Source of the DNA: Bryobacterales bacterium
GTDB taxonomy: Bacteria; Acidobacteriota; Terriglobia; Bryobacterales; UBA6623
Direction: 5' to 3'
Length of the DNA: 64,000 bases
Assembly: GCA_028819215.1 (NCBI GenBank)
Contig: JAPPMG010000096.1
Coordinates: 62,001 to 126,000, forward strand
A model generated the notes under the pieces. It was not told where the DNA came from. It saw only the letters and a list, made by a program, of their open reading frames with translations, and ran no database searches. Made by a program: the position numbers and the translations under genes. This document shows positions 19,199 to 50,247 of this stretch, in pieces; position 1 is the first letter of the stretch; each line of letters begins with the position of its first letter.

Positions 19199-19976
19199 CG
19201 TGCGCCGCATTGGCGGCCGCGGTCTCGCCCGGGTATTCCACGCTCACTAGGAACAGTCCCCGAGCCGGCGCAGTGGGGCCCGCCTCGCGGCGGTCGCGCG
19301 CGGCGAGGATGCGGTCGATGTCGTCGGGCCGGAGATTGCCCCGGCCGACTTCCAGCAGCGTGCCTACGAAGTTCCGCACCATCCGGTACAGGAAGCCCGA
19401 TCCGCGCACCCGGTAGACCAGCAAATCGGCCTCTCTTTGCAGGACTGACGAGTACACCGAGCGCTCGGTAGATTCTTCGGCATCGCCGTCACTGGATGCG
19501 AACGAGCGGAAATCGCGGTCTCCGGCCAGTCGCAGCGCTGCCACGCACATCGCGTCCTCGTCAAGCGGATACGGGTGCCAGTAGGTGAATCGAGCATCGA
19601 AAGGCGGGCATATCGGCGCCCGCTGGATTCGGTATTCGTAGGTCTTGGAGGTCGCCCAGTGACGAGCGTGAAACCCTTCCGGCGCCAAGCGGGCCTCCGT
19701 TACCCGGATGTCGGCCGGCAACAGGCGATTGAGCGCCTTGACCAGGCCATGGGCGGGAATTGGGCTGGCCAGCGTGCAAGAGGCCACTTGGGCCAGCGCG
19801 TGCACGCCCGCGTCGGTGCGTCCCGAGCCGGCGAGTTTGACAGGCCGGCCCTCGATGGCCGCGAGTGCATCCTCGACGGTGCCTTGTATCGTCGTCGCGG
19901 CGGGCTGGACCTGCCAGCCGCTATAGGATGTGCCGTCGTATGCTAGCGTGAGTTTCCAACTGCGCTCGCTGGACAC
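19182..19976 (-). CDS. truA: tRNA pseudouridine(38-40) synthase
   Basis: 264 residues. Modifies uridines in the anticodon stem-loop of tRNA. Signature elements are LTLAYDGTSYSGWQVQP, the catalytic D55 in SGRTDAGVHA, and RGSGFLYRMVRNFVGTLLEVGRG in the C-terminal half. Start is GTG at 19976; no ribosome-binding site is visible and TATATT lies immediately before the start codon. It runs convergently into ispA, with coding overlap of 17 bases. Confidence 0.94.
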   Translation of the reverse strand: MSSERSWKLTLAYDGTSYSGWQVQPAATTIQGTVEDALAAIEGRPVKLAGSGRTDAGVHALAQVASCTLASPIPAHGLVKALNRLLPADIRVTEARLAPEGFHARHWATSKTYEYRIQRAPICPPFDARFTYWHPYPLDEDAMCVAALRLAGDRDFRSFASSDGDAEESTERSVYSSVLQREADLLVYRVRGSGFLYRMVRNFVGTLLEVGRGNLRPDDIDRILAARDRREAGPTAPARGLFLVSVEYPGETAAANAAHVNSSA

Positions 19977-20109
19977 AATATACGCAGCGTAGCGCTGTTC
20001 GCGGGGCAGTTGCCGCTGCCCGTCGCGTAACCAGCGGACCTCCCGCAGCGTCTAATCTTTCTGGGATTCTGCATTCTCCTGCAGTGCTTTGGCCCTTATC
20101 CCCTCCCCT

Positions 20110-22059: not shown

Positions 22060-22128
22060 CTGCGGCCGGGGACAGGCGGTGCGGCAGGCGCGCGCCGCGC
22101 TGGCGGCTTGGAGGTGGTGGAAACCGCA

Positions 22129-23829: not shown

Positions 23830-24529
23830 CACCCAAGGATTCGTATCTCTGGACGCGCTGTCGCGGCGCGACGCCCTGCGGCGGATCGGACTGGCGCTAA
23901 CCGCCACCGGGCTCGGCCAAGGGATAGACGCGGCGGACGCGGCCCAAGTCCACCAGCAGGTCGACGAGGAGCGCACGCTGCAGGGCCAGTACAAGATCAA
24001 GTATTTCAACGAGCACGAATTCCGCACCCTGGAGCGGCTGTCGGAGTTGATCGTGCCGGCCGACGAGGGCGGGCCGAGCGGTCGCGAGGGAGGCGCTCCG
24101 GAGTTCATTGACCTGCTGTCGAGCCAGAACGAAGAGCTGGCCCATATCTTTTCCGGCGGAATCCTGTGGCTGGACAACGCCTCGGCCGAAAGACACGGCA
24201 CGCGCTTCGTAGAGTGCTCCGAGGAGGCGCAGACCGGACTGCTGGATTCGCTGGTCGATGCCGAGCGAAACGAAACCGGCGGGGAGACGAGCTGGGACAC
24301 CCGGGAATACCGGCGCTTTTCTGTATTCGGTGTCAAGTCGCCGTCCGACATGCGTCAAGGGCTGGAGTTCTTCGGCTGGTCGCGCCGTCTGATCGTAGAT
24401 GCGTACTACACCAGTCCTGCGGGTATCAAGGACCTGGGCTTCTTGGGAAATTCCTCGCACACCGAGTACACGGTGCCCCAAGAGGCGATCGATTACGCCT
24501 TCAGGCGCAGCCCGTTGCGTGACGCGTGA
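23822..24529 (+). CDS. Gluconate 2-dehydrogenase subunit 3 family protein, Tat-exported
   Basis: 235 residues, the small partner of the GMC dehydrogenase. Its N-terminus is a twin-arginine signal, SRRDALRRIGLALTATGLG, at about residues 14-32. The body holds the family motifs FNEHEFRTLERLSELIVPAD and RRLIVDAYYTSPAGIKDLGF. In characterised FAD sugar dehydrogenases this subunit chaperones and carries the signalless large subunit through the Tat pathway; that role is inferred here. It overlaps the GMC gene by 8 bases. No cytochrome c subunit is adjacent, so the electron acceptor is not evident. Confidence 0.88.
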   Translation: MSSTQGFVSLDALSRRDALRRIGLALTATGLGQGIDAADAAQVHQQVDEERTLQGQYKIKYFNEHEFRTLERLSELIVPADEGGPSGREGGAPEFIDLLSSQNEELAHIFSGGILWLDNASAERHGTRFVECSEEAQTGLLDSLVDAERNETGGETSWDTREYRRFSVFGVKSPSDMRQGLEFFGWSRRLIVDAYYTSPAGIKDLGFLGNSSHTEYTVPQEAIDYAFRRSPLRDA

Positions 24530-34815: not shown

Positions 34816-36315
34816 TCACCCCCCGGGCGGGGACGCGCTCTCGATAATGCCAGGTGATCGATCGAGCAGGCCGTTGACGGTCGAATCCAGCTTCGTTGTC
34901 AGCGTGGCGGGGATCAGGCCGACCACAAAGACGCCGACTACCAGCGGGACGAGCGTTGCGATCTCGCGCGCGTTCAGGTCCGGCAGAGATTCGAGGGACG
35001 AGCGCGGCTGGCCCAGCACGACGCGCTGCAGCATCCAGAGCATGTACGCGGCTGCCAGCACGATCCCGCTCATCGCGAGCAGGACCTTGAGCATGCCGCC
35101 GAAGGATGTGCCCAGCAGCACTAGGAACTCGCCGGTGAAGTTCCCCATGCCGGGTAGTCCGAAGGATGCCATGGCGAAGATCGACAGCAGGACGACGAAT
35201 CGGGGCATCGGCTTCTGGAGGCCCCCGTAGTCGGCAATCATCCGGGTGTGCGTGCGGTCGTAGAGAAAGCCAATGGCGAGGAACAGGGCCCCGGTCGACA
35301 TGCCGTGAGCGAACATCTGGATTACGGCGCCCTCGATGCCCTGTTCGTTGAATGCGAAGATGCCCAGGGTCACGAAGCCCATGTGGGAAATCGAGGAGTA
35401 CGCTACCAGCTTCTTGAGGTCGGACTGGGCCAGCGCGAGGCATCCGCCGTAGATGATCGCGACGATGGAGAGCCACAAGATGTACGGGGCGAACTCGGCG
35501 GAAGCTTCAGGCAGGATCGGAAGGCAGATCCGCAGAAAGCCGTAGCCGCCCATCTTCAGCAGCACTCCCGCGAGGATCACGCTGCCGGCAGTCGGGGCCT
35601 CCGAGTGGGCGTCGGGCAGCCACGAGTGGAAGGGAACCATCGGCAGCTTGATTGCGAACCCTAAGAACATGAACGAGAAGATCCAGATCTGGACATCTTC
35701 GGGAATGGCGTAGCCCACCATGGCTTGGATGTCGAACGAGCGGCCGGTCTGCAAGTACAGGCCGAGGATCCCGACCAGCAGCAGCAGGCTGCCTGTCAGG
35801 CTGTAGAGCACGAACTTGATCCCTGCGTGGATCCGGCCCGGACCGCCCCAGAGGATGATCATGAAGTACATGGGAATCATCGTGACTTCCCACAGCATGA
35901 AGAACAGGAACAGATCGAGCGCGGTGAAGACGACGATCATCGCGCCCTCCACCAGCAGGATCAGGATCATGTAGGCCTTGACCTTGCTCGTGATAGAGGT
36001 CCATGACGCGAGCACGCAGAGCGGACCCAGCAGCGTGGTGAGCAGGACTAGGATCAGGCTGATGCCGTCGACGCCGACCGCGTACTGGATGTTGAAGTTC
36101 TCCATCCAACTGGTCCGCTCGACGAACTGCATGCCCTCGATCGACGGATCGAATCTCCACCACAGCGCCGCGGACAGGCCCAGCGCGAGCAGGGCAACCC
36201 CCATGGCGACGCGGCGGACCCACACATCGCCCCGAACGAACAGAAGGGCCACGATTCCGGCGAAAGGAACAGTGATCAACGACGTGATCAGGTGTTCTGT
36301 GAAGAGTGATGTCAT
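34816..36315 (-). CDS. NuoM-like proton-translocating antiporter subunit
   Basis: 499-residue polytopic protein of the complex I NuoM/MrpD antiporter family. NIQYAVGVDGISLILVLLTT is the NuoM-type N-terminal signature. The conserved glutamate E143 (FFMLWEVTMIPMYF) and lysine K223 (FAIKLPMVPFHSWLPDAHSEAP), both needed for proton transfer in this family, are present. It is the last gene of an 11-gene operon with Mrp-type subunits, dabA and sulP; no other nuo genes are near. It is 27 bases after the NuoL-like gene. It could be a third antiporter-like subunit of the inorganic-carbon pump rather than part of respiratory complex I. Confidence 0.85.
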   Translation of the reverse strand: MTSLFTEHLITSLITVPFAGIVALLFVRGDVWVRRVAMGVALLALGLSAALWWRFDPSIEGMQFVERTSWMENFNIQYAVGVDGISLILVLLTTLLGPLCVLASWTSITSKVKAYMILILLVEGAMIVVFTALDLFLFFMLWEVTMIPMYFMIILWGGPGRIHAGIKFVLYSLTGSLLLLVGILGLYLQTGRSFDIQAMVGYAIPEDVQIWIFSFMFLGFAIKLPMVPFHSWLPDAHSEAPTAGSVILAGVLLKMGGYGFLRICLPILPEASAEFAPYILWLSIVAIIYGGCLALAQSDLKKLVAYSSISHMGFVTLGIFAFNEQGIEGAVIQMFAHGMSTGALFLAIGFLYDRTHTRMIADYGGLQKPMPRFVVLLSIFAMASFGLPGMGNFTGEFLVLLGTSFGGMLKVLLAMSGIVLAAAYMLWMLQRVVLGQPRSSLESLPDLNAREIATLVPLVVGVFVVGLIPATLTTKLDSTVNGLLDRSPGIIESASPPGG

Positions 36316-36342: not shown

Positions 36343-38460
36343 TCAATTGGCCAGCAAGTACGTCAGGCCGATCGCTAGCGACAGCCAGCACACGATGATT
36401 ACCAGATGGTGGCGCAAAGTCCTGGGCCCGATCCGCTGCAGTGTCTCGCCGGTGTCGTCCGCGAGCCCGCCGGCTCGCTGGAGGGTCTGGCCCGTCGCTG
36501 GCCTATCAACAGCCCGCCACAGCCAGCTCGAGACCCGCACGAGGAGGTTCGTGGCCAACCTGGGCCCGCGGGTCACCAAGCCCGACTCGGCCAGTCTCTC
36601 CAGCCAAGCTGCGGTGCCGGTCACGAGACGGGCCACCCCGGTCACCGCGGGGTCGATCAAGCCGCTCTCCGCCGACCCTTCGAGCACCCGAGCGCCCTCT
36701 CGCACCCCGGCCCCCACCTCGTGGACGGTCCGGTTGATGATGCGGTCTTCAAGCCGGTGCAACAACCAACGCGAGATCCTGAGCGCAGGGCTCACGGCAA
36801 CCACCCGGTAGATCTCGTCGAAGTAGAGTTTGTTCAAGAAGAGCACGTACGCCGTCTTGACCCATTCGCGACGCGCGAAAGGAACCGCCGCGGGGCGCAG
36901 GTGGCAATAGTAGGCGAAGCACCATCCCAGCACGGCAACTGCCAGCGACACTGCGAGTGCAACCGTCAGGCCCGCGCTCTCGGTCTCGGCCGGTAGCGCG
37001 CCGAGGGCCGGCTGGAGGAACTCGCTGAACTCTGACCACACGCCGGCCAGGAGCGCCGTCACCGCGATCGCGCAAGCGGCCAGTCCGGGCAGGTGCGCGG
37101 CTGAGAACAGGCTTGGCTGGGCCTGAACGGACCGGCCGACTGTCGCGCCGAACAGGGAGACGACCCCGCGAAACGCGTAGACCGCGGTCAGGAACACCGC
37201 CGCGAGGGCCACGACCCAGAACGCGATTCGCGCTGACGGGACGTGCTGGGCGTTCCAGAGCTGCTCGTACGGACCGGAAAACAGGACCAAGGGCGGCACG
37301 CACGCCAGCAGCAGGGAGCCCGCCGCAAGCGGCCGGATCCGGCCGCGGGGAGCGCTGGCGCCCCGGTGCGCGTGGCTCCCAGTCGCCCGGAGGGAATCGC
37401 CCGTGGAGAGGAACAGGTATGCCTTGAGAAATCCGTGTGCCAACAGGTGGAAGATGGCGGCTCCAAATGCGCCGACGCCGCACGCGAAGATCATGAAGCC
37501 GATCTGGCTGATCGTCGAATACGCCAGCAGCCTCTTGATGTCTGACTGGGTGAGCGAGACCAGTGCGCCGTACAGAGCCGTAATCGCGCCGACGACTGCA
37601 ATCGCTGCCATCGCCGACGGAGCCAGCAGCACCAGGGGGCTGAGCCGTGCGAGAAGGAAAGGCCCAGCGTTCACCATCGTCGCAGCATGGATCAGCGCCG
37701 AGACCGGCGTTGGCGCCTCCATGGCGTAGGGCAGCCACACGTGCATCGGCACCTGTGCCGACTTGCCGATCGCTCCGCTAAGCAGGCAGAGCGCGATCAA
37801 GGTGTTCCGCTCGATTTCGAGCCCGAATGCGCCGAGGGCCTGCCCTTGCATGGCGGGAGCCTGGGCAAGGATTTCCTGGATGTTGAAGGTCCCGTATGTG
37901 GCAAACGTGAGCACGACGCCGAAGCCCAGGCCGACGTCGGCGACGGCGTTCACCAAGAACGCCTTCGTGGCTGCCTGGCCGGCTTCCCGCCTGTGGGCCC
38001 AGTGGGAGATCAGCAGATAGGAGCAGATTCCCATCACCTCCCAGCACATATAGGTCACCAGCAGGTTGTCGCTCATGACCAGCATCGTCATGGCGAACGT
38101 GAACAGGCCGATGACCGCGAAGAACTTTCGGTACCTCGGGTCGCCGGTCATATATCGGGCCGAGTAGACATGGACCACGAAGCTGACGCCCGTGATGAGC
38201 GGGAGCAGCAGCACAGTGAGCTGGTCCGCGTAAAGGCCGACCGTGACGACCAGGTCGCCCACGTCCAGAAAGCGGTAAAGCGGGATCGAGAGCGCTCCGT
38301 TTCGGGCCACCTCCGCCAGCGCTGCGATGGAGAGCGCGAATGAGAGGCCGACTGCGGGAATCCCGACCCGGTGACTGGCGTCTGCGAAACGGCGGCCGCC
38401 CACCGCCAGTATCACGAATGCGGCGAGCGGCAGGCCGGGAATCAGGGCAAAGAGCGGCAT
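36343..38460 (-). CDS. NuoL/MrpA-like antiporter subunit, likely DabB-type partner of DabA
   Basis: 705 residues. Family signatures are SARYMTGDPRY, E141 in MCWEVMGICSYLL, and K233 in GKSAQVPMHVWLPYAMEAPT leading to H258 in SALIHAATMVNAG. The last ~200 residues contain a long amphipathic, charge-rich stretch between hydrophobic segments, as in NuoL and MrpA. Within this operon it takes the place of the large N-terminal part of MrpA, whose C-terminal part is encoded separately at 40791. By analogy with DabB, the NuoL-related membrane partner of DabA, it is the best candidate to couple ion flow to DabA, although mrpD is also related. Confidence 0.82.
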   Translation of the reverse strand: MPLFALIPGLPLAAFVILAVGGRRFADASHRVGIPAVGLSFALSIAALAEVARNGALSIPLYRFLDVGDLVVTVGLYADQLTVLLLPLITGVSFVVHVYSARYMTGDPRYRKFFAVIGLFTFAMTMLVMSDNLLVTYMCWEVMGICSYLLISHWAHRREAGQAATKAFLVNAVADVGLGFGVVLTFATYGTFNIQEILAQAPAMQGQALGAFGLEIERNTLIALCLLSGAIGKSAQVPMHVWLPYAMEAPTPVSALIHAATMVNAGPFLLARLSPLVLLAPSAMAAIAVVGAITALYGALVSLTQSDIKRLLAYSTISQIGFMIFACGVGAFGAAIFHLLAHGFLKAYLFLSTGDSLRATGSHAHRGASAPRGRIRPLAAGSLLLACVPPLVLFSGPYEQLWNAQHVPSARIAFWVVALAAVFLTAVYAFRGVVSLFGATVGRSVQAQPSLFSAAHLPGLAACAIAVTALLAGVWSEFSEFLQPALGALPAETESAGLTVALAVSLAVAVLGWCFAYYCHLRPAAVPFARREWVKTAYVLFLNKLYFDEIYRVVAVSPALRISRWLLHRLEDRIINRTVHEVGAGVREGARVLEGSAESGLIDPAVTGVARLVTGTAAWLERLAESGLVTRGPRLATNLLVRVSSWLWRAVDRPATGQTLQRAGGLADDTGETLQRIGPRTLRHHLVIIVCWLSLAIGLTYLLAN

Positions 38461-38505
38461 CCTAGCTAGATCCTCCCTTTGTGCGTGCCGTGTCCGTCAT
38501 GGGCG

Positions 38506-39975
38506 TCATATCCCGAGAGGCGCCGTGGCATCTACCAGCAGCGCGACGACGTGGTCGTTCCAGATGCCCAGTCCCACGATTGCCGCGACGAGCGCAGCCA
38601 TGGTCGTGCGCAGGGGCCATGGCGTCTCCGGCTGGCGAGCGGAGGCGCTTTCGGTCCCGGCGCGAACAAGCTTCTCGAAGACTTGGGCGAAATAGCCCAG
38701 GGTGATGAGCGTGGTCAGAACGATCGCAGCGGCCGCGATATTGTTGTCCGCCTCCAAGGCGCCGAGCAGGATTCTCAGCTTGCCGAAGAAGCCTCCTGTG
38801 GGAGGCAGGCCGACCATGCCGAGGCCAACCGCCACGAACGTCACGATCGCCCAAGGGTTGCGCACGTGGGCACGGCCGAGCTCGTCCAGCGTGGACGCCC
38901 CGTATCGCAGGGCTAGGAATCCGGCCAGAACGAACAATGAGCACTGCATCACTGCGTCGTTGAGCAGGTAGTACATCGCACCCGCCAGCCCCGTCTCGTT
39001 GGCCTGCCCGACCCCGATCAGCACTAGGCCCACATGGGAGATGCCGCCATACGCGAACATTCGCTTCAGCTCGCGCTGGCGAAGAGCCAGGCAGGCGCCG
39101 GCGACCGCCGCCAGGATTCCGAACGTGGTGACCAGCGCGAATATGGTGAGGGTCCCGCCTTCGGCGCTCGGCCGCATGACCCAGTAGAGAATCCGCGCCC
39201 AGACCAGAAGCGAGATCTTTGTCACCAGGCCCGCAAGCAGCGGCACGGTCGAGGCCGGCGCGTCGCTGTAGGCGTCGGGAAGCCAACCGTGAAGCGGCAT
39301 GAGTGCCATCTTGATGGCCAGCCCGATGAACATGAAGATCAGGCCGCCCATGACTGCCTTGGAATCGAGCAGGCCGGGCAGCCGCTGGGATAGGTCGGCG
39401 ATGTTCAGGGCACCGGTCGCGGCGTAGAAGTACCCCACGCCCAGCAGGTAGAAGGCGGTCCCCAAGGCACCCATCAACAGATACCGGAAGGCCGATACGA
39501 GCGCGCGGCCGCCCGGGACGGCCACTAGGGCGTAGGCGGACAGCGAGACCACTTCCAAGAACACGAAGATGTTGAACAGGTCGCCGGCGTAGATGGCGCC
39601 GCTCAGGCCGGCGACCAGCAGCAGCACCATCGTGTAGTACGGGACCGCGCGGCCGCCGAGCGGGCGATCCCCGAGCCCGTCGGCGAACAGAAGGCAGAGC
39701 ACGCCCAGCCCGCTCACGGCTGTGACCATCGTCGCGGCAAGCGAATCGGCGAGCCATTCGATTCCGATTGGAGGCAGCCATCCGCTGAACGAGTACCGGA
39801 TCTCTCCGTGAACGGACACCGACCACAGGCTCGCCACCGACAGCACGGTCATGCAGCAGATCGCGACCAGTGCAAGCGGGCGGCACACAGCCGGGTGCCG
39901 ATGGCCGGCCACGGGCATCGAGATCGCGGTAGCGAGCGGCGTGAGGAACACCAAGGCCGGGAGGTGCTCGGTCAT
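38506..39975 (-). CDS. mrpD: MrpD-like cation/proton antiporter subunit
   Basis: 489 residues with about 14 membrane spans. MrpD-type signatures are GDLFNIFVFLEVVSLSAYAL with E141, and LAIKMALMPLHGWLPDAYSDAP with K222, the conserved charged pair. RMFAYGGISHVGLVLIG and GLPPTGGFFGKL follow as usual. The ATG overlaps the mrpC stop (ATGA). MrpD is one of the two large antiporter subunits of Mrp Na+/H+ antiporters. Confidence 0.9.
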   Translation of the reverse strand: MTEHLPALVFLTPLATAISMPVAGHRHPAVCRPLALVAICCMTVLSVASLWSVSVHGEIRYSFSGWLPPIGIEWLADSLAATMVTAVSGLGVLCLLFADGLGDRPLGGRAVPYYTMVLLLVAGLSGAIYAGDLFNIFVFLEVVSLSAYALVAVPGGRALVSAFRYLLMGALGTAFYLLGVGYFYAATGALNIADLSQRLPGLLDSKAVMGGLIFMFIGLAIKMALMPLHGWLPDAYSDAPASTVPLLAGLVTKISLLVWARILYWVMRPSAEGGTLTIFALVTTFGILAAVAGACLALRQRELKRMFAYGGISHVGLVLIGVGQANETGLAGAMYYLLNDAVMQCSLFVLAGFLALRYGASTLDELGRAHVRNPWAIVTFVAVGLGMVGLPPTGGFFGKLRILLGALEADNNIAAAAIVLTTLITLGYFAQVFEKLVRAGTESASARQPETPWPLRTTMAALVAAIVGLGIWNDHVVALLVDATAPLGI

Positions 39976-40349
39976 CCTAGCTTCTCCAAGACCTCGTCCT
40001 CGTCAAGGCTCCCGAAGCTCCGGTAGATCCTTGAGACCAGCCCTAGCGAGACGCCCAGCGTGGCGATCTGGACAACGATCGCCGTCAGCGTCAGCACCTG
40101 CGGGAGCGGATTGACGTAATCGCCTGCCCCAGGTGCCTCCACGCCGCTCAAGATCACCGGCACGGTGGCACCCTCCTTGGCTCCCGTCGTCACGAGAAAG
40201 AAGATCACGCTGGTCTGGACGATGTACAGGCCGACCAGCTTCTTGACGTAGTTGTGGTGGGTGATCGTGATGTACAGCCCCCACAGCAGCAGCAGGACGA
40301 ACGCGACAAGGTTGGGCCGGCTCAGAGCCGCCTCGATCAACTCAAGCAT
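39972..40349 (-). CDS. mrpC: MrpC-like (NuoK-related) antiporter subunit
   Basis: 125 residues from the ATG at 40349; three membrane spans. LWGLYITITHHNYVKKLVGL and PVILSG, then DYVNPLPQVLTLTAIVVQIATLGV, are characteristic of MrpC/MnhC, the NuoK homologue. The TALTLTAIVV-like stretch is well kept (LTLTAIVVQIA). It overlaps mrpB by 8 bases and mrpD by 4. Confidence 0.9.
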   Translation of the reverse strand: MLELIEAALSRPNLVAFVLLLLWGLYITITHHNYVKKLVGLYIVQTSVIFFLVTTGAKEGATVPVILSGVEAPGAGDYVNPLPQVLTLTAIVVQIATLGVSLGLVSRIYRSFGSLDEDEVLEKLG

Positions 40350-40794
40350 CGGTGTTCTCGGATTCAACGTTGCGGGACAGGCTGTACACGATCGAGACCG
40401 CTGCAACGGCGACGTCCAGCGCCACGCCGACCTGCGTCATTAGGATGCCGAGATATCGGCGGGCCGCGCTGTCGAGCCCCGGAATCGGGGCCTGTGAGTA
40501 GTTGAGGAATTCGCCGCCTCCGATCAGGCAGAGCCCGCCGACCGCGACGAAAAGGAGCAGGCCTACGCCGTCGCCCGCCAGCAGGCGCGTGGCCCGCTGC
40601 GCGGTCTCACTGTCCTCTCCGAACACGAGCAGCCCGAACACCAGGCTTGCCGCGATCATCACCCCCGCGACGAAGCCGCCGCCGGGCCCGTACTGGCCGA
40701 AGAACAGGACATAAAGCGCGAATAGCTGCACGAGAGAGACCAGCAGCGAGGCGGTTCTCCGGACGATTACGCTGCCAAACGGGGAGTCGATCAC
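40342..40794 (-). CDS. mrpB: MrpB-like antiporter subunit
   Basis: 150 residues, four membrane spans. The MnhB signature GQYGPGGGFVAGVMIAASLV is intact, followed by GGGEFLNY and LGILMTQVGVALDVAVAAVSI. It is a small structural subunit of the Mrp complex. Both ends overlap neighbours (4 bases with the MbhD/E-like gene, 8 with mrpC). Confidence 0.9.
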   Translation of the reverse strand: MIDSPFGSVIVRRTASLLVSLVQLFALYVLFFGQYGPGGGFVAGVMIAASLVFGLLVFGEDSETAQRATRLLAGDGVGLLLFVAVGGLCLIGGGEFLNYSQAPIPGLDSAARRYLGILMTQVGVALDVAVAAVSIVYSLSRNVESENTDA

Positions 40795-41321
40795 TCTGCA
40801 TCCCTCCTCAGAAGGAGCCAGCAGGCAATGCCGGAGGTAAAGACGACGACTGTCTCGATCAGGGTGTCAAGGACGCGGTAGTCCATCAGGACGGACGTCA
40901 CCACGTTAGGGGTCCGGGTGTCGGCGAGGCTGTTTTCGATGTAATGGGGGGACACATGCACGCTGGCCGGGGACGCGGGATCTCCGAAGGCGGGCAGGTC
41001 GTTCGCCGCGTACAGCAGGAGCAGGCCCAGAAGAGGAAGCGCGATCACGGCGATGATCGGAGGCGGAGGCCTTCGGATGCGGGTGTCCTCCGGAGAGGTC
41101 TGGGAGAGCGTCAGAAGGAAGAAGACCGTTGCAAGCCCTGCCCCGACGACGGCCTCAACGAATGCGACATCCGCCGCCCCCAGCCAAGCCCAGACCAGCG
41201 CGAGGAAGAAGCTGTAGGCTCCGAGAATCAGCACGGCGCTGATCAGTTCCTTGACAATGATCGCCCCGCCGGCCGTTAGGATCAGCAGCGCGAGCAGGGG
41301 CAGTTCGAACGAATATGTCAT
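40791..41321 (-). CDS. MbhD/MbhE-like protein equal to the C-terminal part of MrpA
   Basis: 176 residues. The first half (about 1-75) is a DUF4040/MbhD-like unit: AVLILGAYSFFLALVWAWLG followed by ADVAFVEAVVGAG. The second half holds an MbhE-like unit with NVVTSVLMDYRVLDTLIETVVVFTSG, the motif normally found at the C-terminal end of MrpA. In this operon MrpA is therefore split, with the antiporter part supplied by the NuoL-like gene. ATGA overlaps join it to mrpG before it and mrpB after it. Confidence 0.85.
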   Translation of the reverse strand: MTYSFELPLLALLILTAGGAIIVKELISAVLILGAYSFFLALVWAWLGAADVAFVEAVVGAGLATVFFLLTLSQTSPEDTRIRRPPPPIIAVIALPLLGLLLLYAANDLPAFGDPASPASVHVSPHYIENSLADTRTPNVVTSVLMDYRVLDTLIETVVVFTSGIACWLLLRRDAE

Positions 41322-41629
41322 CGCCGGTCCTCCGCGACAGGCTTCTGGCCGGACCTCAGTGCGGCCCGGACGGTTGCGTGCGAAATGACGGGATTCACCA
41401 AGATCAGCAGCGCGAGCACGACAAGTATCCGGAATGTGTTGGTGCTGAATCCGTGATAAGTCGCCAATCCCATCAGGACGAAGAAAGCGCCCAGGGCGTC
41501 AGTCAGCGAGACCGCGTGCGAACGGGTGAATACGTCCGGCAGTCGCACCATCCCGACGGCTGCGACGACCAAGAAGAACAGGCCGACGGCGATCATCGCT
41601 GTCACGGCGACCGACACTAAGTCCTCCAC
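41318..41629 (-). CDS. mrpG: MrpG-like antiporter subunit
   Basis: 103 residues, three membrane spans. The MnhG signature is present: AAVGMVRLPDVFTRSHAVSLTDALG followed by a third helix ending NPVISHA. Its start overlaps mrpF by 13 bases and its end overlaps the MbhD/E-like gene by 4. Confidence 0.9.
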   Translation of the reverse strand: MEDLVSVAVTAMIAVGLFFLVVAAVGMVRLPDVFTRSHAVSLTDALGAFFVLMGLATYHGFSTNTFRILVVLALLILVNPVISHATVRAALRSGQKPVAEDRR

Positions 41630-41877
41630 CTCTGGGTCAGGTACTTGGTGATCGCCAGCACGCCGACCAAGTTCAGAAGCGCATAGCCGGTCGAGATGTC
41701 AACGAACATCTCGACTCGTTCGTACACGGTTCCGATCACGATAAGCAGGATGATCGTCTTGGTGGAAATGCCGTTCAGTCCTAGCAGGCGGTCGAACACT
41801 GTCGGCCCACGGATGACCCGGTAGAGGTACATCACGATCAGGATCGCGATGACGTCCAGAACGAAGAGGAGACTCAT
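41617..41877 (-). CDS. mrpF: MrpF-like antiporter subunit
   Basis: 86 residues, three membrane spans. YRVIRGPTVFDRLLGLNGIS is the MrpF hallmark, with a conserved aspartate in the loop, followed by MFVDISTGYALLNLVGVLAITKYL. It overlaps mrpE by 4 bases and mrpG by 13. Confidence 0.92.
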   Translation of the reverse strand: MSLLFVLDVIAILIVMYLYRVIRGPTVFDRLLGLNGISTKTIILLIVIGTVYERVEMFVDISTGYALLNLVGVLAITKYLTQRWRT

Positions 41878-42368
41878 CTCTGCCCGCCCCCAGCGGGGAA
41901 GACCCTTGCCACCATCTTCTCGAGCCTCTGGCTGAGCACATCCCCGGTCGAGTCCTCGTCCAGTGCGTGCACGATCAGTTCCTCCTCGTCCGCCTCGACG
42001 GTGACAGTGCCCGGCGTCAGCGTGATGGAGTTGCCCATCAGCAGAACTGCCTCCTCACTTCCCAAGTCGGCCCGGTGGCGGAACAGCACGGGCTTGATCG
42101 GCAACCGCGGATGAAGGATGAGATACGAAACGTGAACGCCGCTGACGAGCATCCGGCTGAACAGCCATGGAATGTACAGCAGCGCTCTCCACCAGCGAAT
42201 GACATAGGTCCGCTCGGCGCGAAGGTCGGTGCGGAGCAGCGCGACGAGCAAGGCCGCCGCGAAGCCTACCGCCATGTGCAACGCGTTGAAGCTCTCCGAT
42301 AGCAGCAGCCACAGCACGAACAGGACAACTGTCCAGTACGCCAAGCCCTTGGTGTAGCGAGTGCTCAT
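41874..42368 (-). CDS. mrpE: MrpE-like antiporter subunit
   Basis: 164 residues from the ATG at 42368. Two N-terminal membrane helices (about 10-45), then a cytoplasmic domain with SRMLVSGVHVSYLILHPRLP and LLMGNSITLTPGTVTV, the MrpE signature. It begins 5 nt after the dabA stop codon, tying the carbon protein to the antiporter genes on one mRNA. Confidence 0.92.
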   Translation of the reverse strand: MSTRYTKGLAYWTVVLFVLWLLLSESFNALHMAVGFAAALLVALLRTDLRAERTYVIRWWRALLYIPWLFSRMLVSGVHVSYLILHPRLPIKPVLFRHRADLGSEEAVLLMGNSITLTPGTVTVEADEEELIVHALDEDSTGDVLSQRLEKMVARVFPAGGGQR

Positions 42369-42373: not shown

Positions 42374-45151
42374 TCAGGCGGCCGCCTCGAGAGTCAGTCG
42401 GGCCCAAGTCGAATCGGTGCAGTACCTTTGGAACTCGTTGCGGTCGGCGTCAAAGGCCAGCAGGTTCACCCACTGGTTGTGAAACAGGGCCTGCAGGATC
42501 TCGTGCTTGGCGATGATCCCGGAAATCCTCTCCGGCGGTGCGTCGATGACGGCTAGCAGGCGCATCGGTTCGTGGTACCGGCGCGGCCCGTCAATCACGC
42601 CCTGCACTGGCAGGCCGCCCTGCAGGTCGCCTTGGCTGCCCAGCATGACGCCGACCCCGCCCACCACGTTGTGGATCACCTTGCTCCCGCTTCCGTACAC
42701 CCATGGGTCGGCCGAGGAGAAATAGTACTCCATGTTAATCCACTCCCCCACGATGAGCGGAGCGGTCATGATCCGTTCGAGGATGCCTCCGTCAGGGTCG
42801 CTGGCCGGGTCGTAAGAATGCAGGAACACGCGCGCCTCCAGGTCCAGCCCCTTGGTCAGCCAGCGCCTTCCGATCAGAAATGCCGCATTGCTGGAGAGCC
42901 CCCATTCCGGGCGCGGGTTAGCCCAGTCCACGCTGCGTCCGATCGCGTGGAGCACGGCGCGGCGCGCGTTCAGACCACGCGGCACCCCGGGCAGCTTGGC
43001 GATCCGCTCGCTCGCCTGCACCGCGCCGGCCGCGGCCAGGCTCCGTTCCAGTCGGCTGAGCTCGTCCCGGTGGCTCGATGGCACGTCGATCAGGTCGTAG
43101 AAGGAGACGCGGTCGGTGGCGGTATCGTGCTTGGCCGCCACGAACCACACGTCGTCAGGGATCTGCAGGCCGCTCTCGGCTACGGCCCGGCGGACAGCCG
43201 GGTCGTTGGCCATCGTGGTGAACACGCGTGCGTTCGGATCGCCGTGCGCTCCCCCGCAGGCGCCGCAGTTGTAGGCCGCCGCGTACGGGTTGTTGTCGGA
43301 CTCCGAGCCGTGCCCGCACACGACCACCAGCCGTGCCATCGGGTCGGTCAGCCCGATCATCCGCAGGCCGCCCCCAACGAACCCCGCCCTCTCCTCGATC
43401 GTGAATCCGCCAGGCCCGACTGATTCGACCTCGGCCGTCTCCAAGGTAAAGCCGGTCTCCAGCTTGGCTCTGAACCGCCTCCTGAGCAGGGAACGGATCG
43501 CGGCGTAGGGCCGTAGGAACAGGGTCTTGCCGACCAAGGCGATGCTGAACAGGAGGCCAAGCACGTCGACAAGCACGAACGAGCCCAAGGGGTGCTGCTT
43601 CAGGTCGTGGAAGAGCTCGTCTCCGAAGCGCCGCCAGCGCGTGCCGGAGGCATACTTCGCCAGCGGGCGTTCCTCGCCGGGTCGCGGCTCCTCGTCGACT
43701 GCGCGGGGCGGTTTCAGCAACACGGGACACAGCGCCAAGCGGTCAGGGCTGTCGAACGCCTCGTGACTGAAGGGAACGCCGAAGAACCCGGCATAGCCGA
43801 AGGTTTCGAAATTGCCGGAGGCCTCGATATGTCGCCGGAACGGCTCGGAACGGGCATCGATGCAGAAGATCAGCTGCGCGTCCGGCCGGGAACTGGGCAC
43901 CCGCTCCGCCCGGCGGTGTCCCGCTAGCTTGCCCATCAAATGGTCCGCATAGGTGTCTTCGTAGGCCGCCAGCCACACTGGCCCGTGCCGATCCTCGGGA
44001 AAGCGCTCGAGCCAGCCCAGCAGGGTCTTGGCTCCATCGCCGGCCAGCTCGCGGACCTGTTCCGGAGTCAACCCAAGGACCACGGCCAGCTGGTACAGCC
44101 GGCCGACCGCGAGTTGGCGGGCCCCTGCGTCCCCTCCGCGCTCCGCCTGCTCGCGCGCCCAGGCGCGGATGCTGTCCAAGGTGCCGGGCACGCCAAGTTC
44201 CTTGCGGCAGGCGGCCGCGACCAGCTCGACCTCGTAGAACAGCCTCACGGCCAGGTAGTCCACCAAGTCGATGGGGTGCTCGTGCTGGGCCGGGTACTGC
44301 GGGTTTTCGCTCCTCCAGCGCGCGAATCCGGTCCAGCCCGGCAGCTGCGCGAACATGCGCGACTGGTATTCGCCCCATCGTTCCGGAGGGATGCCAAGCC
44401 GCTGCAATCCCGCCTGGATCCACGCCTCGGCGGCATCCGGCAGCGCCTCCACCTTCGCGGCGAAGTCGGGAACCCCCAGGAAACGGCCCGATCGGTCCCG
44501 TCTCGCCAGGTCGCGCCAGCAGCGAAAGAAGCCCTCTTGACGGGAAGGCATGCCCCAGCCGGCCATGCCCTCGTCGAGGAACGAGGCCGACCACTTGATC
44601 ATCTCGTCGTTGATCGAATCCACGACCGGCGAGCCGGCCAGCTCAGCGACCCAGTCGCTGAGAGTTCTCGCCGGCGGCAGGTCCGGCACCCCGTCTTGGT
44701 TGCCACTCCCGTTCTCGGGGCAAGCCTCCGAGGCGGCTGCCAGCAGCTTCGTACTGCCGTCTTCTCTGGCCTGCCAGGCAAGCACCGACGGAGAGGGGGG
44801 CTCGACGCCTTGCGTCAACTGCGCCCAGACAACCTCGTCCGGGTCGAGGGCCCGGCCGCTGACGTGGACGGCCCCTTCGGAAATGTCAGGGCCTAGCCGG
44901 GCCAGAGCCCGGCGCAGGTGTGCGTCCGAGATCCGCCCGGCACGCCGAAAGGCCCGATACTCGCTGCCCGAAAGAAAGCCGGCCCCTCCAATCATCCCAG
45001 CCGCTTCGCGCACGCCTTGGTCGAACGGAAGGTCTTCGTAGCCGCGCACGGGATTGCGGTAAGCGAAGGTCTTCAACGGCCAGATCTGCGCCGCGGGGCG
45101 AGCCGCTTCAAGGACCTGCTCGCGCAGTGCTTGGGATTGGTCGGGACTCAT
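42374..45151 (-). CDS. dabA: DabA-type zinc protein of an inorganic-carbon (DAB) transporter (DUF2309)
   Basis: 925 residues, slightly longer than typical. DabA resembles a beta-carbonic anhydrase and with a NuoL-like partner drives energy-coupled CO2 hydration/bicarbonate accumulation. The predicted zinc and active-site residues are kept: C430 and D432 in LIFCIDARSEPFRRH, H614 in VVCGHGSESDNNP, and C629 in YNCGACGGAHGDPNARV. The N-terminal region has WPLKTFAYRNPVRGYEDLPF and QAEHPIDL-type family features (HEHPIDLVDYL). Only one or two short hydrophobic segments occur (about 522-545), as expected for a peripheral protein. It starts 21 nt after sulP and ends 5 nt before mrpE. Direction of transport and substrate here are inferred. 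Confidence 0.92.
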   Translation of the reverse strand: MSPDQSQALREQVLEAARPAAQIWPLKTFAYRNPVRGYEDLPFDQGVREAAGMIGGAGFLSGSEYRAFRRAGRISDAHLRRALARLGPDISEGAVHVSGRALDPDEVVWAQLTQGVEPPSPSVLAWQAREDGSTKLLAAASEACPENGSGNQDGVPDLPPARTLSDWVAELAGSPVVDSINDEMIKWSASFLDEGMAGWGMPSRQEGFFRCWRDLARRDRSGRFLGVPDFAAKVEALPDAAEAWIQAGLQRLGIPPERWGEYQSRMFAQLPGWTGFARWRSENPQYPAQHEHPIDLVDYLAVRLFYEVELVAAACRKELGVPGTLDSIRAWAREQAERGGDAGARQLAVGRLYQLAVVLGLTPEQVRELAGDGAKTLLGWLERFPEDRHGPVWLAAYEDTYADHLMGKLAGHRRAERVPSSRPDAQLIFCIDARSEPFRRHIEASGNFETFGYAGFFGVPFSHEAFDSPDRLALCPVLLKPPRAVDEEPRPGEERPLAKYASGTRWRRFGDELFHDLKQHPLGSFVLVDVLGLLFSIALVGKTLFLRPYAAIRSLLRRRFRAKLETGFTLETAEVESVGPGGFTIEERAGFVGGGLRMIGLTDPMARLVVVCGHGSESDNNPYAAAYNCGACGGAHGDPNARVFTTMANDPAVRRAVAESGLQIPDDVWFVAAKHDTATDRVSFYDLIDVPSSHRDELSRLERSLAAAGAVQASERIAKLPGVPRGLNARRAVLHAIGRSVDWANPRPEWGLSSNAAFLIGRRWLTKGLDLEARVFLHSYDPASDPDGGILERIMTAPLIVGEWINMEYYFSSADPWVYGSGSKVIHNVVGGVGVMLGSQGDLQGGLPVQGVIDGPRRYHEPMRLLAVIDAPPERISGIIAKHEILQALFHNQWVNLLAFDADRNEFQRYCTDSTWARLTLEAAA

Positions 45152-45172: not shown

Positions 45173-46765
45173 TCAGGACTTCTTCGTACGGGCTGCGGTG
45201 GGATCGTCCGAGAAGGGGTGATGCCCCTCGAGACCCCGGATCTCGAGGCTCGCTCCCTCCTCTTCGAACTCTTTCTCCATTTCGCGCAGCCGATCCATGA
45301 CCGTGTGATCGACGAGCGTCGTCCCCGACAGGTCGACCCGAACCGCAGTCTCTCCCTTGAGGGCTTCAATCCGCTTCTTAAGGCCGATCCAAGTCGAGAA
45401 CACCGCCGAGTCGTTTACCTTAACGGTGGCTCCATCCTCGGAGCGGTCGATGTCGGCCCGAAGCCGGAACAGCGAGGCGACCGGCACGCCGTTCACGAGG
45501 TGGATGAGGACCTTGACCAAGATTCCGATCCCGATCCCTACGAGCAGGTCCGTGGCCAGCACTCCGACAATCGTGGCGACGAAGATGACGAGCTGCTCGC
45601 GGCCCACGTGGTACATGTGCACGAATTCCTTCGGCGAGGCCAGCCGGAAGCCGGTAAAGACGAGCATCGCTCCGAGGGCGGCCAGCGGGATCATGTTGAT
45701 CAGAGCGGGGGCAAGCGCCACGAACACCAGCAGGAACATGCCGTGGTACATGTTCGCGAAACGGGTCTTTGCCCCGTTGTCGATGTTCGCCTTGCTGCGG
45801 ACAATCTCAGAGATCATCGGCAGGCCTCCCACCAACGCCGAGGCCGTGTTCCCTACTCCGATCGCCAGCAGGTCGCCATCGTAATTGGTCTTCCTGCGGT
45901 ACGGGTCGATCTGGTCGACCGCCTTGGCACTGAGCAGCGACTCGAGGCTGCCGATTAACGAGAAGAGGATGATGTACTTAACCCCTGTTGCGGTCGCGAC
46001 ACCGGAGAAGTCCGGGAACGTCAGAGCGCCGAACATATTGGACGGAACGTCGACGAGGAACTCGCGCCCCAGACCGTAGTGCAGCCCTAGCGGCACGGTG
46101 ACCAGCACCACCACGAGCGGTGCCGGTATGGCTCTGAGGCCCGGGATCTTCAGGAACGGATATCCAAACATGATGACCAAGCTGATGATGCCGATCAGGC
46201 CCACTTGGGGATGCATGTCGGTGAAGTAGCTGGGAATCCTAGCCAGCAGCTCAAGCGGCGTCCCCTCCGAGCCGAGCCCCAGCGTGACGGGTAGCTGCTT
46301 GGCGAAGATAATCACGCCGATTGAGGCGAGTAGCCCGTGTACGGCGGCCGGGGGGAAGAACTCGCCCAAGATGCCGGACCGGAACACGCCGAAGAGAATC
46401 TGGATGACGCCTGCGACGACGCCCACGCCCAGGGCCAAGCGGTACGCGTCGATGTCGGCGGCCGGATCGCGGCCCGCGGTGAAGCCGAAGTCTGTCACGC
46501 ACCCGATAGCGATGACGATGAGGCCGGCCGCCGGGCCCTTGATCGTCAGCTCGGAATTGCTAAACACGGTGCCGACGATCCCGCCGATAATTGCGGTGAA
46601 TATCCCTGCTATGGCCGGGTAGCCGCAGGCCAGGGAAATTCCGAGGCAGAGGGGCAGCGCGATGAGGAAGACCAGGAATCCGGACAGCAGGTCAGGTCCC
46701 CAGTAGCGCTTGAAGCCCGATCCGTTTCCTTGCGGAATGTCCCCGGTGTCGACCATAAGAGACAT
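45173..46765 (-). CDS. SulP-family anion transporter (possible bicarbonate transporter) with STAS domain
   Basis: 530 residues from the ATG at 46765; an ATG at 46756 is an alternative start. Ten or more membrane spans include SGFLVFLIALPLCLGISLACGYP, TIKGPAAGLIVI and GSLESLLSAKAVDQIDP, all SulP features. A C-terminal STAS-like domain lies at about 430-505 (TAVRVDLSGTTLVDHTVMDRL). SulP members carry sulfate, bicarbonate (BicA) or other anions. Being first in the operon with dabA and Mrp genes, it is most likely for bicarbonate, but sulfate cannot be excluded. TATCCT lies directly upstream of the first ATG. Confidence 0.9.
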   Translation of the reverse strand: MSLMVDTGDIPQGNGSGFKRYWGPDLLSGFLVFLIALPLCLGISLACGYPAIAGIFTAIIGGIVGTVFSNSELTIKGPAAGLIVIAIGCVTDFGFTAGRDPAADIDAYRLALGVGVVAGVIQILFGVFRSGILGEFFPPAAVHGLLASIGVIIFAKQLPVTLGLGSEGTPLELLARIPSYFTDMHPQVGLIGIISLVIMFGYPFLKIPGLRAIPAPLVVVLVTVPLGLHYGLGREFLVDVPSNMFGALTFPDFSGVATATGVKYIILFSLIGSLESLLSAKAVDQIDPYRRKTNYDGDLLAIGVGNTASALVGGLPMISEIVRSKANIDNGAKTRFANMYHGMFLLVFVALAPALINMIPLAALGAMLVFTGFRLASPKEFVHMYHVGREQLVIFVATIVGVLATDLLVGIGIGILVKVLIHLVNGVPVASLFRLRADIDRSEDGATVKVNDSAVFSTWIGLKKRIEALKGETAVRVDLSGTTLVDHTVMDRLREMEKEFEEEGASLEIRGLEGHHPFSDDPTAARTKKS

Positions 46766-48228: not shown

Positions 48229-48420
48229 GGCGTGGACTACGTGCTGCGCGGCCATCTCGGTGACGGGTGCGCCGCCAACCATGGTAAACCCGCAAGGGCA
48301 GGCCGCGCCGTGGGCTTCGCTGTGGGCGGGGCTATTCTTGAGGAACGGTGGGTTGCGCTCTCCAAGGAGCAGACGCGCTGCATTCCGTTGCTTTGATTGC
48401 GCAGTTGTGAGGTGTTCGCG

Positions 48421-50247
48421 GTGGCGGAGTCTTTGACTCTTTTCGCGTTGTCGATGGGACTTCTGAGCGCATGCTCGCTGCCACTGGGAACGCTGTCGAC
48501 CCTGGTCTGGCGACCTCATGACCGCTCCGTCGGCATCCTAATGGCCTTCGGCGGCGGCGCTCTCCTGGCAGCGCTGACGCTCGATCTGGTCTCCTCCGCG
48601 CTTGCACAGGGGCATTTCCCGTGGCTCGCGGCGGGATGCGTTCTCGGGGGCGGCATGTTCGTCGGGTTGAACAACGTAATCAACCATCACGGGGGCTTCC
48701 TGCGCAAGTCTTCGACCGTGGTGAACTATCTGCGCCGCAGGCGCCGCAAGCGCTTCAGGAAGGCGCTCGGCGAACTGGAGCGGATCGCCATATTTCGCGA
48801 CCTGAAACGACATGACCTCGAAGATCTCGCGTCCGCTGCCATGCACGCCGAATTCGAGACCGGCGCAACCATCTTCAGTGTTGGAGACCCGTCCGACTTC
48901 CTCTATCTGGTCTGGGAAGGAGAGGTGTCGACGACGGATCCGTCGCTACCGAGCGCTACGCCCGCGGTACACCGCACGGGCGGGACTCCCGGGCAGCATG
49001 CCTTCATCACCGGGTCTCCCCACACCAGGCATGCCGTCGCGACGCAGGACGCGCAGGTCTGGATGCTGCCACGAGAGGAATTCCAGAAGGCTGTGGGGCT
49101 TTCGGAGCCGCTCGCTGCCGCAACCGCGAAGCTCATTTCTAGCGACGCTGTCGCCGACTACTTGAAGAATCGCCAAGGACTGACCGGGGAACAGGTCGCT
49201 CGCTGGCGGGAGAGCGCCTTCGCGGGCGTTGCCGCCGGCGTGTTGCCCAACGCCGTCGGCATCGAGCGCCATCGCGACGAGTTTGTCCGCACATCTGCCG
49301 GAATCCGCAGCCTTCCCATCTTTCGCGGACTGTCGCCGACGGATCTGAGCGCTGTCGCCGACCGGCTGTTCTGTGTGCGGTACGAACGGGGCGAGACGAT
49401 CTACCGCCACGGCGAACTGGCGGACCGCCTCTACGTTGTGGCGAGCGGGCAGGCGGCGTTGATTCCCCCGGCGGGACGGGCTCTCCGGCGCATGACCGCG
49501 GAACCGGGCGAGGCGCTCGGCGGCAAGTCGTTCATCACTAACGCACGCCGCTTCTACAGTTCCGTCGCGATCGATGCTACGGAGCTCTGGGTGCTGCGCA
49601 AGTCCGACTTCGACGCATTGATGCGGCGCTATCCGGCGATTTCGGAGAAGGTCAGGGAGTATCTCGAAGGTGTGGAGAACCGGGACTACCTGACGAGTGT
49701 GCGAGGGTCGGCTACGCGGGAAGTGCAGCGTTGGATCAGCCGCGCCACGCGGAACGTCGACAGCGGTCGTCTGATGCCGTCGGTCCCGGACATGGCCGCG
49801 CATGTCAATCTCCACAAGGGCGCGCCGCTGGCCATCTGGCTGGGCATCCTGCTGGACGGCATCCCCGAATCCCTGGTCATCGGCAGCTCGCTGATTCACG
49901 GCCCGGTCAGCTTTTCCCTGATTGCCGGCCTGTTTTTGTCGAACTACCCCGAGGCGTTGTCGAGTTCGGTCGGGATGCAGCAGCAAGGGATGAGTTTCGC
50001 GAGGGTCCTGTTCATGTGGGCCTCGCTGATGGTGCTGACCGGCATCGGGGCGGCGCTCGGCAGCATCTTCTTCGTCGGAGCGGATCCGCACGCCTTCGGC
50101 CTGGTTCAAGGGATTGCCGCCGGCGCGATGCTGACCATGATTGCGCAGACGATGGTGCCCGACGCCTACCTGAAAGCGGGCCCAGTCATTGGCATTGCGA
50201 CGCTGATGGGTTTTCTGGCTGCAATCTTCTTCAAGACCCTTGAATAG
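48421..50247 (+). CDS. ZIP-like metal transporter interrupted by two cyclic-nucleotide-binding-like domains
   Basis: 608 residues from the GTG at 48421, with GAGG 8 nt before it. Three membrane spans lie at about 3-85 (GILMAFGGGALLAALTLDLV is ZIP-like). A very basic linker (LRRRRRKRFRKAL) leads to two cNMP-binding-like beta-barrels at about 118-245 and 300-420. Five more spans follow from about 472. ZIP-type helices 4 and 5 are recognisable as LLDGIPESLVIGSSL (P482-E483) and LFLSNYPEALSSSVGM (P510-E511), though the usual histidines are replaced by Asp/Asn. The second barrel keeps a phosphate-cassette-like GEALGGKSFITNARRF; the first has GQ for GE. Role inferred: ion or metal transport gated by a nucleotide or other ligand. 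I know of no characterised homologue. Confidence 0.75.
   Translation: MAESLTLFALSMGLLSACSLPLGTLSTLVWRPHDRSVGILMAFGGGALLAALTLDLVSSALAQGHFPWLAAGCVLGGGMFVGLNNVINHHGGFLRKSSTVVNYLRRRRRKRFRKALGELERIAIFRDLKRHDLEDLASAAMHAEFETGATIFSVGDPSDFLYLVWEGEVSTTDPSLPSATPAVHRTGGTPGQHAFITGSPHTRHAVATQDAQVWMLPREEFQKAVGLSEPLAAATAKLISSDAVADYLKNRQGLTGEQVARWRESAFAGVAAGVLPNAVGIERHRDEFVRTSAGIRSLPIFRGLSPTDLSAVADRLFCVRYERGETIYRHGELADRLYVVASGQAALIPPAGRALRRMTAEPGEALGGKSFITNARRFYSSVAIDATELWVLRKSDFDALMRRYPAISEKVREYLEGVENRDYLTSVRGSATREVQRWISRATRNVDSGRLMPSVPDMAAHVNLHKGAPLAIWLGILLDGIPESLVIGSSLIHGPVSFSLIAGLFLSNYPEALSSSVGMQQQGMSFARVLFMWASLMVLTGIGAALGSIFFVGADPHAFGLVQGIAAGAMLTMIAQTMVPDAYLKAGPVIGIATLMGFLAAIFFKTLE

What the first reader, a model, noticed from the sequence alone, without database searches (positions are those of the whole stretch)
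36343..41321. MrpA is split: NuoL-like antiporter and MbhD/E-like tail are separate genes, with a third antiporter subunit
Canonical Mrp has one large MrpA carrying both the NuoL-like part and the MbhD/E-like tail. Here they are two genes at opposite ends of the cluster, and a NuoM-like subunit is added. NuoL-like, NuoM-like and MrpD-like proteins each keep the Glu/Lys pair (E141/K233, E143/K223, E141/K222). That gives three potential ion channels, more than in Mrp, and recalls Mbh/Mbs or complex I membrane arms without the hydrophilic arm.
Basis: partly seen in the sequence, partly recalled or inferred. Interest (0 to 1): 0.6.

Follow-up and report, generated by a model that had tools for sequence, protein, structure and literature searches.

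The report
Ion-pump operon with a CO2-hydrating arm
An uncultured Acidobacteriota lineage carries a conserved operon in which a split sodium/proton antiporter with a NuoL-like and a NuoM-like subunit sits together with a membrane-coupled carbonic-anhydrase-like protein, and one of those subunits has lost exactly the charged site that this protein supplies in a related two-part machine.

Summary
In detail: NuoL-type (36343-38460), NuoM-type (34816-36315) and MrpD-type (38506-39975) genes and a separate MbhD/E gene (40791-41321), with the stated Glu/Lys pairs. As framed it is mostly known: 'group 3' Mrp operons split MrpA and often carry three antiporter subunits; 19 of 20 other Acidobacteriota loci that I read are of that type. 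The unusual part is different. Here the second and third antiporter subunits are of complex I type, and the operon begins with SulP and DabA. The order SulP-DabA-E-F-G-DE-B-C-D-L-M holds in 15 of 15 copies read, down to 53% DabA identity. In all 15 the NuoL-type subunit lacks the TM12 Lys-Asp that 30 of 30 complex I NuoL of the same order keep. In DAB2 that site is filled by the acidic 'finger' of DabA; all 15 DabA here keep an acid there, and the genome has no DabB. Best reading: DabA docks on the NuoL-type subunit of a three-antiporter, Mrp-like membrane arm, making an ion-gradient-driven, one-way CO2 hydrase. A single complex is inferred, not shown; two neighbouring complexes remain possible.

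The parts
45173..46765 (-). SulP-family anion transporter, first gene of the operon (start codon uncertain)
   Evidence: Pfam Sulfate_transp 5e-54; best PDB match 6ki1 (named 'low affinity sulfate transporter' in the listing; BicA by recall) 8.4e-21; matches NCBIfam BicA at 116.5 bits, far below its cut-off of 880; present in 15 of 15 copies
42374..45151 (-). DabA (PF10070), beta-carbonic-anhydrase-like cytoplasmic subunit; C430, D432, R434, H614, C629; finger acid D529
   Evidence: Pfam DabA 845 bits; PDB 9rd0_A (DabA2) E 3.8e-113; residues 15 of 15
41874..42368 (-). MrpE
   Evidence: PF01899
41617..41877 (-). MrpF (Asp of the DR motif kept; Asn in place of Asp35 of Mrp)
   Evidence: PF04066; alignment
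41318..41629 (-). MrpG
   Evidence: PF03334; TIGR01300 over cut-off
40791..41321 (-). stand-alone MbhD/MbhE protein = detached MrpA tail; E56, D152, E156
   Evidence: PF13244 + PF20501, NF009159 over cut-off; residues 15 of 15
40342..40794 (-). MrpB
   Evidence: PF04039
39972..40349 (-). MrpC (NuoK-like; lacks the two cation-binding His of Mrp)
   Evidence: PF00420; alignment
38506..39975 (-). MrpD-type antiporter subunit (cD): E141, K222, K399
   Evidence: PF00361; PRK12662-like; groups with D of split Mrp (93/91)
36343..38460 (-). NuoL-type antiporter subunit (cL): E141, K233, K309, H338, H342, K346 kept; TM12 Lys-Asp replaced by P397-Y398; Arg175 equivalent replaced by Ala172
   Evidence: TIGR01974 over cut-off; residue tables
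34816..36315 (-). NuoM-type antiporter subunit (cM): E143, K223, E396
   Evidence: TIGR01972 over cut-off; inside the NuoM clade 100/99

Best explanation
The operon codes for a Mrp-DAB hybrid. An ordinary split (group 3) Mrp core (E, F, G, MbhD/E, B, C, D) has, in place of its usual extra antiporter subunits, a NuoL-type and a NuoM-type subunit recruited from the complex I lineage, and it carries DabA as its cytoplasmic arm. DabA inserts its finger helix into the NuoL-type subunit; Asp529 takes the place of the lost TM12 Lys-Asp and completes that proton path, as Glu444 of DabA2 does in DabB2. Proton (or, through the Mrp part, sodium) motive force then drives one-way hydration of CO2 to bicarbonate. 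The NuoM-type, MrpD-type and small subunits move further H+/Na+, balancing the protons released or sharing the gradient, while SulP handles bicarbonate or another anion. Shown: genes, order, conservation, residues kept and lost, no DabB, RuBisCO large subunit or alpha-carbonic anhydrase found in the genome. Inferred: docking of DabA on the NuoL-type subunit, a single complex, the coupling ion, the direction, and bicarbonate supply for carboxylases or pH balance in a host without RuBisCO.
For: Conserved operon in 15 of 15 copies read, DabA identity 53-94% in the 12 scanned loci; gaps between genes from -13 to +45 bp. DabA keeps the DAB2 zinc ligands and Asp-Arg dyad 15 of 15 (residues named in PMC13144422 section 8). 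TM12 Lys-Asp lost in 15 of 15 cL and kept in 30 of 30 NuoL of the same order; every NuoL/M/N, MrpA/D and split-Mrp reference keeps Lys or Glu there, while no DabB in the set keeps Lys (one reads Arg in one of two alignments). In DAB2 that site is taken by DabA2 Glu444, whose change abolishes activity (PMC13144422 section 11); the aligned residue here is Asp in 15 of 15 and Glu in 7 of 10 other DabA. The genome has eight PF00361 proteins: nuoL/M/N, mrpA/D and these three, so no DabB. cL has, unlike DabB, a long amphipathic C-terminal stretch and a last TM as in NuoL, which in Mbs and complex I clamps neighbouring antiporter subunits (PMC7684303 passages). In 20 split-Mrp loci of other Acidobacteriota families no DabA was found and none has a NuoL-type plus NuoM-type pair in the operon (one has a NuoL-like gene alone): DabA and the L/M swap go together.
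Against: No structure of the assembly: both single-chain predictions failed (mean pLDDT 46.0 and 54.8), so no fold search was made. cL is nearer NuoL than DabB in the tree, though a cL+DabB clade is not rejected (AU p 0.161). Mrp cation-path residues are only partly kept: MrpC lacks His37/His40 and MrpF has Asn for Asp35, as also in split Mrp of Haloterrigena and Peptoclostridium. DabA and cL are separated by seven genes. Three clade-C DabA (G307, G275, G187) have no finger acid and still occur with a DabB without the Lys, so acid and Lys loss are not strictly paired. The genome also has an ordinary beta-carbonic anhydrase. All 15 copies come from one lineage (one family as far as tested), so they are not independent events.
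Confidence: 0.5

Rival explanations
1. Two complexes from one operon: DabA plus the NuoL-type subunit form a DAB-like pair, and the NuoM-type and MrpD-type subunits with MbhD/E, B, C, E, F, G form a separate Mrp antiporter. SulP and the Na+ gradient tie them together physiologically only.
For: DAB works as a two-protein complex (PMC13144422); cL shares the TM12 loss with DabB; a two-antiporter Mrp is the standard form (PMC5703873).
Against: cL keeps a NuoL-like long C-terminal amphipathic stretch with a last TM that DabB lacks; gene order interleaves DabA - Mrp - L - M in 15 of 15.
Confidence: 0.27
2. A three-antiporter Na+/H+ antiporter (group 3 Mrp variant) used for pH and salt balance; DabA acts mainly as an accessory bicarbonate supplier with no coupling to the antiporter.
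For: MbhD/E keeps E56, D152, E156 (the last two match MrpA D792/E796) in 15 of 15; Ca. Nitrospira alkalitolerans has a similar set with BicA (PMC7784846).
Against: TM12 loss in cL would damage a plain antiporter subunit; MrpC His pair and MrpF Asp35 absent; the genome already has a complete group 1 mrpA-G.
Confidence: 0.15
3. The NuoL/NuoM-type genes are displaced parts of respiratory complex I.
For: The tree places cM inside NuoM and cL next to NuoL.
Against: A separate nuo locus with C, D, H, I, J, K, L, M, N exists in the same genome; cL and cM are each one clade at 100/100; tandem with Mrp in 15 of 15.
Confidence: 0.03

Closest known systems
Group 3 (split) Mrp antiporter: Haloterrigena plasmid, Peptoclostridium plasmid, other Acidobacteriota
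   Same: Same order E-F-G-MbhD/E-B-C-D followed by further antiporter subunits; MbhD/E detached; D subunits group together
   Different: Second and third antiporter subunits there belong to other clades (Halot_2/Sino2_D1, Halot_3/Sino2_D2) and keep the TM12 Lys; no DabA in the stretches read
DAB / MpsAB (DabA-DabB) of Halothiobacillus and relatives
   Same: DabA with zinc ligands, Asp-Arg dyad and finger acid; a NuoL-family partner without the TM12 Lys
   Different: No DabB; the presumed partner is NuoL-like with the long C-terminus; nine further operon genes; finger acid Asp, not Glu
COGNAT 'clade C' ybcC operons (PMC5700660): DabA upstream of a NuoL homologue, with SulP and NuoM
   Same: DabA upstream, SulP, NuoL- and NuoM-type genes (section read); G307, G187 and G275 here show DabA, DabB and a NuoM-like gene
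   Different: No Mrp genes are mentioned in the text read; the clade-C-like DabA and DabB are separate clades from the window's; its supplementary figure was not seen
Ca. Nitrospira alkalitolerans Mrp locus (PMC7784846)
   Same: Group 3 Mrp with NuoM- and NuoL-like genes after mrpD and a SulP (BicA) gene (passages)
   Different: The main text has no hit for DUF2309; whether DabA is there was not tested
Mbh/Mbs and complex I membrane arms
   Same: Detached MbhD and MbhE, several antiporter subunits, Mrp-like small subunits
   Different: No hydrogenase, Mbs or Nuo redox subunit in the operon; DabA in their place

Membership tests
Mrp (CPA3), group 3 | All subunit types E, F, G, B, C, D and an MrpA equivalent present | tested here: met
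   Pfam/NCBIfam; MrpA equivalent is split into cL and MbhD/E
Mrp (CPA3), group 3 | Cation-path residues: MrpA E706/D792/E796, MrpF D35, MrpC H37/H40 (PMC7419157) | tested here: inconclusive
   E56 (MbhD-type Glu), D152, E156 kept 15 of 15; MrpF Asn for D35 and no MrpC His pair, as in other split Mrp
Mrp (CPA3), group 3 | Na+(K+)/H+ antiport activity | not testable with these tools
   needs a transport assay
DAB / MpsAB | DabA with Zn ligands C351, H524, C539 and dyad D353-R355 | tested here: met
   C430, H614, C629, D432, R434 in 15 of 15
DAB / MpsAB | Finger Glu444 of DabA | tested here: inconclusive
   Asp529 in 15 of 15; an acid, but not Glu
DAB / MpsAB | Adjacent DabB (DabB clade, short C-terminus) | tested here: not met
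   no DabB in the operon or genome; cL sister to NuoL 92/71; the AU test does not reject cL+DabB, p 0.161
DAB / MpsAB | Energy-dependent CO2 hydration or bicarbonate accumulation | not testable with these tools
   needs a complementation assay
Respiratory complex I | NuoL/NuoM linked to quinone and NADH modules | tested here: not met
   no other nuo gene matched in the window; separate nuo locus on C43
Mbh/Mbs | Hydrogenase-like or Mbs catalytic subunits | tested here: not met
   every gene from SulP to NuoM is assigned; none is of that kind

The most novel reading that the evidence does not exclude
A third kind of complex I-like machine: a three-antiporter, Mrp-derived membrane arm whose peripheral arm is a carbonic-anhydrase-like protein instead of a redox module, so that CO2 hydration, H+ flow and Na+ flow are coupled in one complex. 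Its NuoL-type subunit became dependent on DabA by losing its own TM12 charge pair, possibly independently of DabB.
Probability: 0.4. Interest if true: 0.82.

Novelty: new variant of a known kind. Interest (0 to 1): 0.6.

Why it matters
If DabA really caps a three-antiporter Mrp arm, it would be a natural example of a complex I-type membrane arm coupled to a non-redox enzyme, and would let the long-range coupling in such arms be studied without electron transfer. The loss of TM12 Lys-Asp matched by the DabA finger is a directly testable point-for-point prediction. It also shows how Mrp, DAB and complex I parts may be swapped in evolution, and that an Acidobacteriota lineage without RuBisCO invests a ten-gene machine in inorganic carbon.

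Tried and rejected
Structure prediction of cL (A1, ten sequences) and DabA (A2, ten sequences) gave mean pLDDT 46.0 and 54.8; too poor, so no fold search was run. A 16S rRNA search of the genome found none, so naming rests on the record titles of the 12 close loci (Bryobacterales / Terriglobia / Acidobacteria MAGs). The idea that DabA feeds a Calvin cycle was dropped: no RuBisCO large subunit in a 99% complete genome. The idea that DabA is the only carbonic anhydrase was dropped: one beta-type elsewhere, no alpha-type. The idea that split MrpA plus a third antiporter is itself the novelty was dropped. The claim that SulP is BicA-like is weak: its best PDB match is 6ki1 (which I recall to be BicA), but it is far below the NCBIfam BicA cut-off.

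Papers seen: PMC13144422 outline, sections 8, 11, 12 and passages; PMC5700660 section 10 and passages; PMC7419157 section 8 and passages; PMC5703873 outline and passages; PMC7784846, PMC7684303, PMC8305020, PMC9080137 and PMC13399641 passages only. A tree display failed on row names and was repeated.
Full report
WHAT IS THERE. The minus strand of the window carries, in order of transcription, SulP (45173-46765), DabA (42374-45151), MrpE, MrpF, MrpG, a stand-alone MbhD/E protein (40791-41321), MrpB, MrpC, an MrpD-type (38506-39975), a NuoL-type (36343-38460) and a NuoM-type protein (34816-36315), followed 224 bp later by a PpiD-like chaperone. The gaps between SulP and NuoM run from -13 to +45 bp, so one transcript is likely.

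THE GENOME. It is a 5.86 Mb, 103-contig, 99% complete assembly. It has eight Proton_antipo_M proteins: nuoL, nuoM and nuoN on C43, mrpA and mrpD of a full group 1 mrpA-G set on C64, and the three here. The C43 locus has nuoC, D, H, I, J, K, L, M, N. No RuBisCO large subunit, no alpha-carbonic anhydrase, one beta-carbonic anhydrase. The nearest named records are Bryobacterales, Terriglobia or Acidobacteria MAGs; that several are from sponges is recalled, not tested.

CONSERVATION. One scan of genome contigs with the window's DabA gave 12 loci; all 12 have the complete order SulP-DabA-E-F-G-DE-B-C-D-L-M, with DabA identities of 53-94%. Two further genomes, G305 and G327, have it too; with the window that makes 15 copies read. 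In the family, 16 of 18 genomes have DabA; 15 of these also have the stand-alone MbhD/E gene, and the other, G307, has DabA-DabB-NuoM-like instead. In a phylum sample DabA occurs in 5 of 297 genomes; the four other than the window's carry it beside a DabB, without Mrp.

THE SPLIT IS ORDINARY. Haloterrigena and Peptoclostridium plasmids have E-F-G-(DE)-B-C plus three antiporter genes. In a phylum sample of 396 genomes, 102 match the MbhD/E protein, fused MrpA included. I read 20 loci of the stand-alone or two-gene type from other families: 19 have the E-F-G-DE-B-C-D core; in 14 of the 20 it is followed by two antiporter subunits of two other clades (D1, D2; in one of the 14 the D2 frame is in pieces), in three by one, and two are cut by the contig end; one has the order L-DE-B-C-D-E-F-G. 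None of the 20 showed DabA in the stretch held (7.6-19 kb, some cut by contig ends). Group 3 Mrp with irregular order and extra subunits is in print (PMC5703873), as is a Nitrospira locus with NuoM- and NuoL-like genes after mrpD and a SulP gene (PMC7784846).

WHAT IS NOT ORDINARY. First, the identity of the extra subunits. In a 62-row tree the cluster's M subunits fall inside NuoM (100/99), its L subunits beside NuoL (92/71) within a NuoL+DabB group (100/99), and its D subunits with D of split Mrp (93/91). A tree with L and DabB as one clade is not rejected (p-AU 0.161). Second, a residue swap. In all 15 cluster L proteins the TM12 Lys399-Asp400 of E. coli NuoL is Pro-Tyr (13) or Thr-Tyr (2), and Arg175 is Ala or Ser, while E144, D178, K229, K305, H334, H338 and K342 are kept; 30 of 30 NuoL proteins from the same order keep Lys-Asp (in one of the 30, L098, the frame is broken upstream and its early columns do not count). 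M and D keep their TM12 Glu and Lys in 15 of 15. Among references, the only proteins without Lys or Glu there are DabB.

WHY THAT POINTS TO DabA. In the DAB2 structure the finger helix of DabA2 inserts into DabB2, and Glu444 takes the place of NuoL Lys399/Asp400; changing Glu444 abolishes activity (PMC13144422, section 11). The window's DabA matches DabA2 (PDB 9rd0) with 382.7 bits. All 15 cluster DabA keep the zinc ligands (C430, H614, C629), the Asp432-Arg434 dyad and an Asp at the Glu444 position; seven of ten other DabA have Glu there, the three clade-C-like ones have neither. With no DabB in the genome, the NuoL-type subunit is the obvious partner. Unlike DabB, it keeps a long amphipathic C-terminal stretch with a last hydrophobic helix, the element which in Mbs and complex I holds neighbouring antiporter subunits together (PMC7684303).

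FUNCTION. The best reading is a membrane-potential-driven one-way CO2 hydrase attached to a Mrp-like arm with M and D channels and a detached MbhD/E cation path. MbhD/E keeps E56, D152 and E156 in 15 of 15, the last two matching MrpA D792 and E796 by motif and spacing, the first lying at the MbhD-type Glu position; against a standard Na+ path, MrpC lacks the cation-binding His pair and MrpF has Asn for Asp35. Since no RuBisCO was found, bicarbonate would serve carboxylases or pH balance. This is inference.

KNOWN OR NEW. COGNAT (PMC5700660) already described DabA operons with SulP and NuoM and proposed multi-subunit energy-converting complexes. The Mrp part, the NuoL-type in place of DabB and the residue swap were not found in searches of an open-access library. 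I rate it a new variant of a known kind. The strongest doubts are the missing structure, the restriction to one lineage, and the possibility of two complexes from one operon.

Noticed in passing
L077 (Rhodopseudomonas sp. BAL398 plasmid pBAL398.3), 3287-10645: A plasmid carries NuoA, H, J, K, L, M, N only, a complex I membrane arm with no annotated hydrophilic-arm genes beside it; its NuoL has Glu-Glu in place of Lys399-Asp400.
   Followed up: no
L076 (Sinorhizobium sp. C101 plasmid), 7709-24331: The second nuo operon has two Mrp-D-like subunits (of the same clades as the haloarchaeal second and third antiporters) plus NuoM, with no NuoL or NuoN annotated.
   Followed up: partly
L079 (G307) 12451-18333; L017; L019: DabA-DabB-NuoM-like triplets in Acidobacteriota: DabA there has no acid at the finger position, and the NuoM-like third subunit has Glu-Asp at the TM12 site in the two that were aligned (G275, G187).
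   Followed up: partly
window 48397-50247, + strand: A protein with two cyclic-nucleotide-binding domains between hydrophobic ends that look to me, by eye only, like a ZIP-type metal transporter; an unusual fusion next to the operon.
   Followed up: no
L145, L148, L152: A NuoM-like gene of about 51% identity to the window genome's own NuoM lies antisense, just downstream of the split Mrp operon, in three genomes of one other Acidobacteriota family.
   Followed up: no
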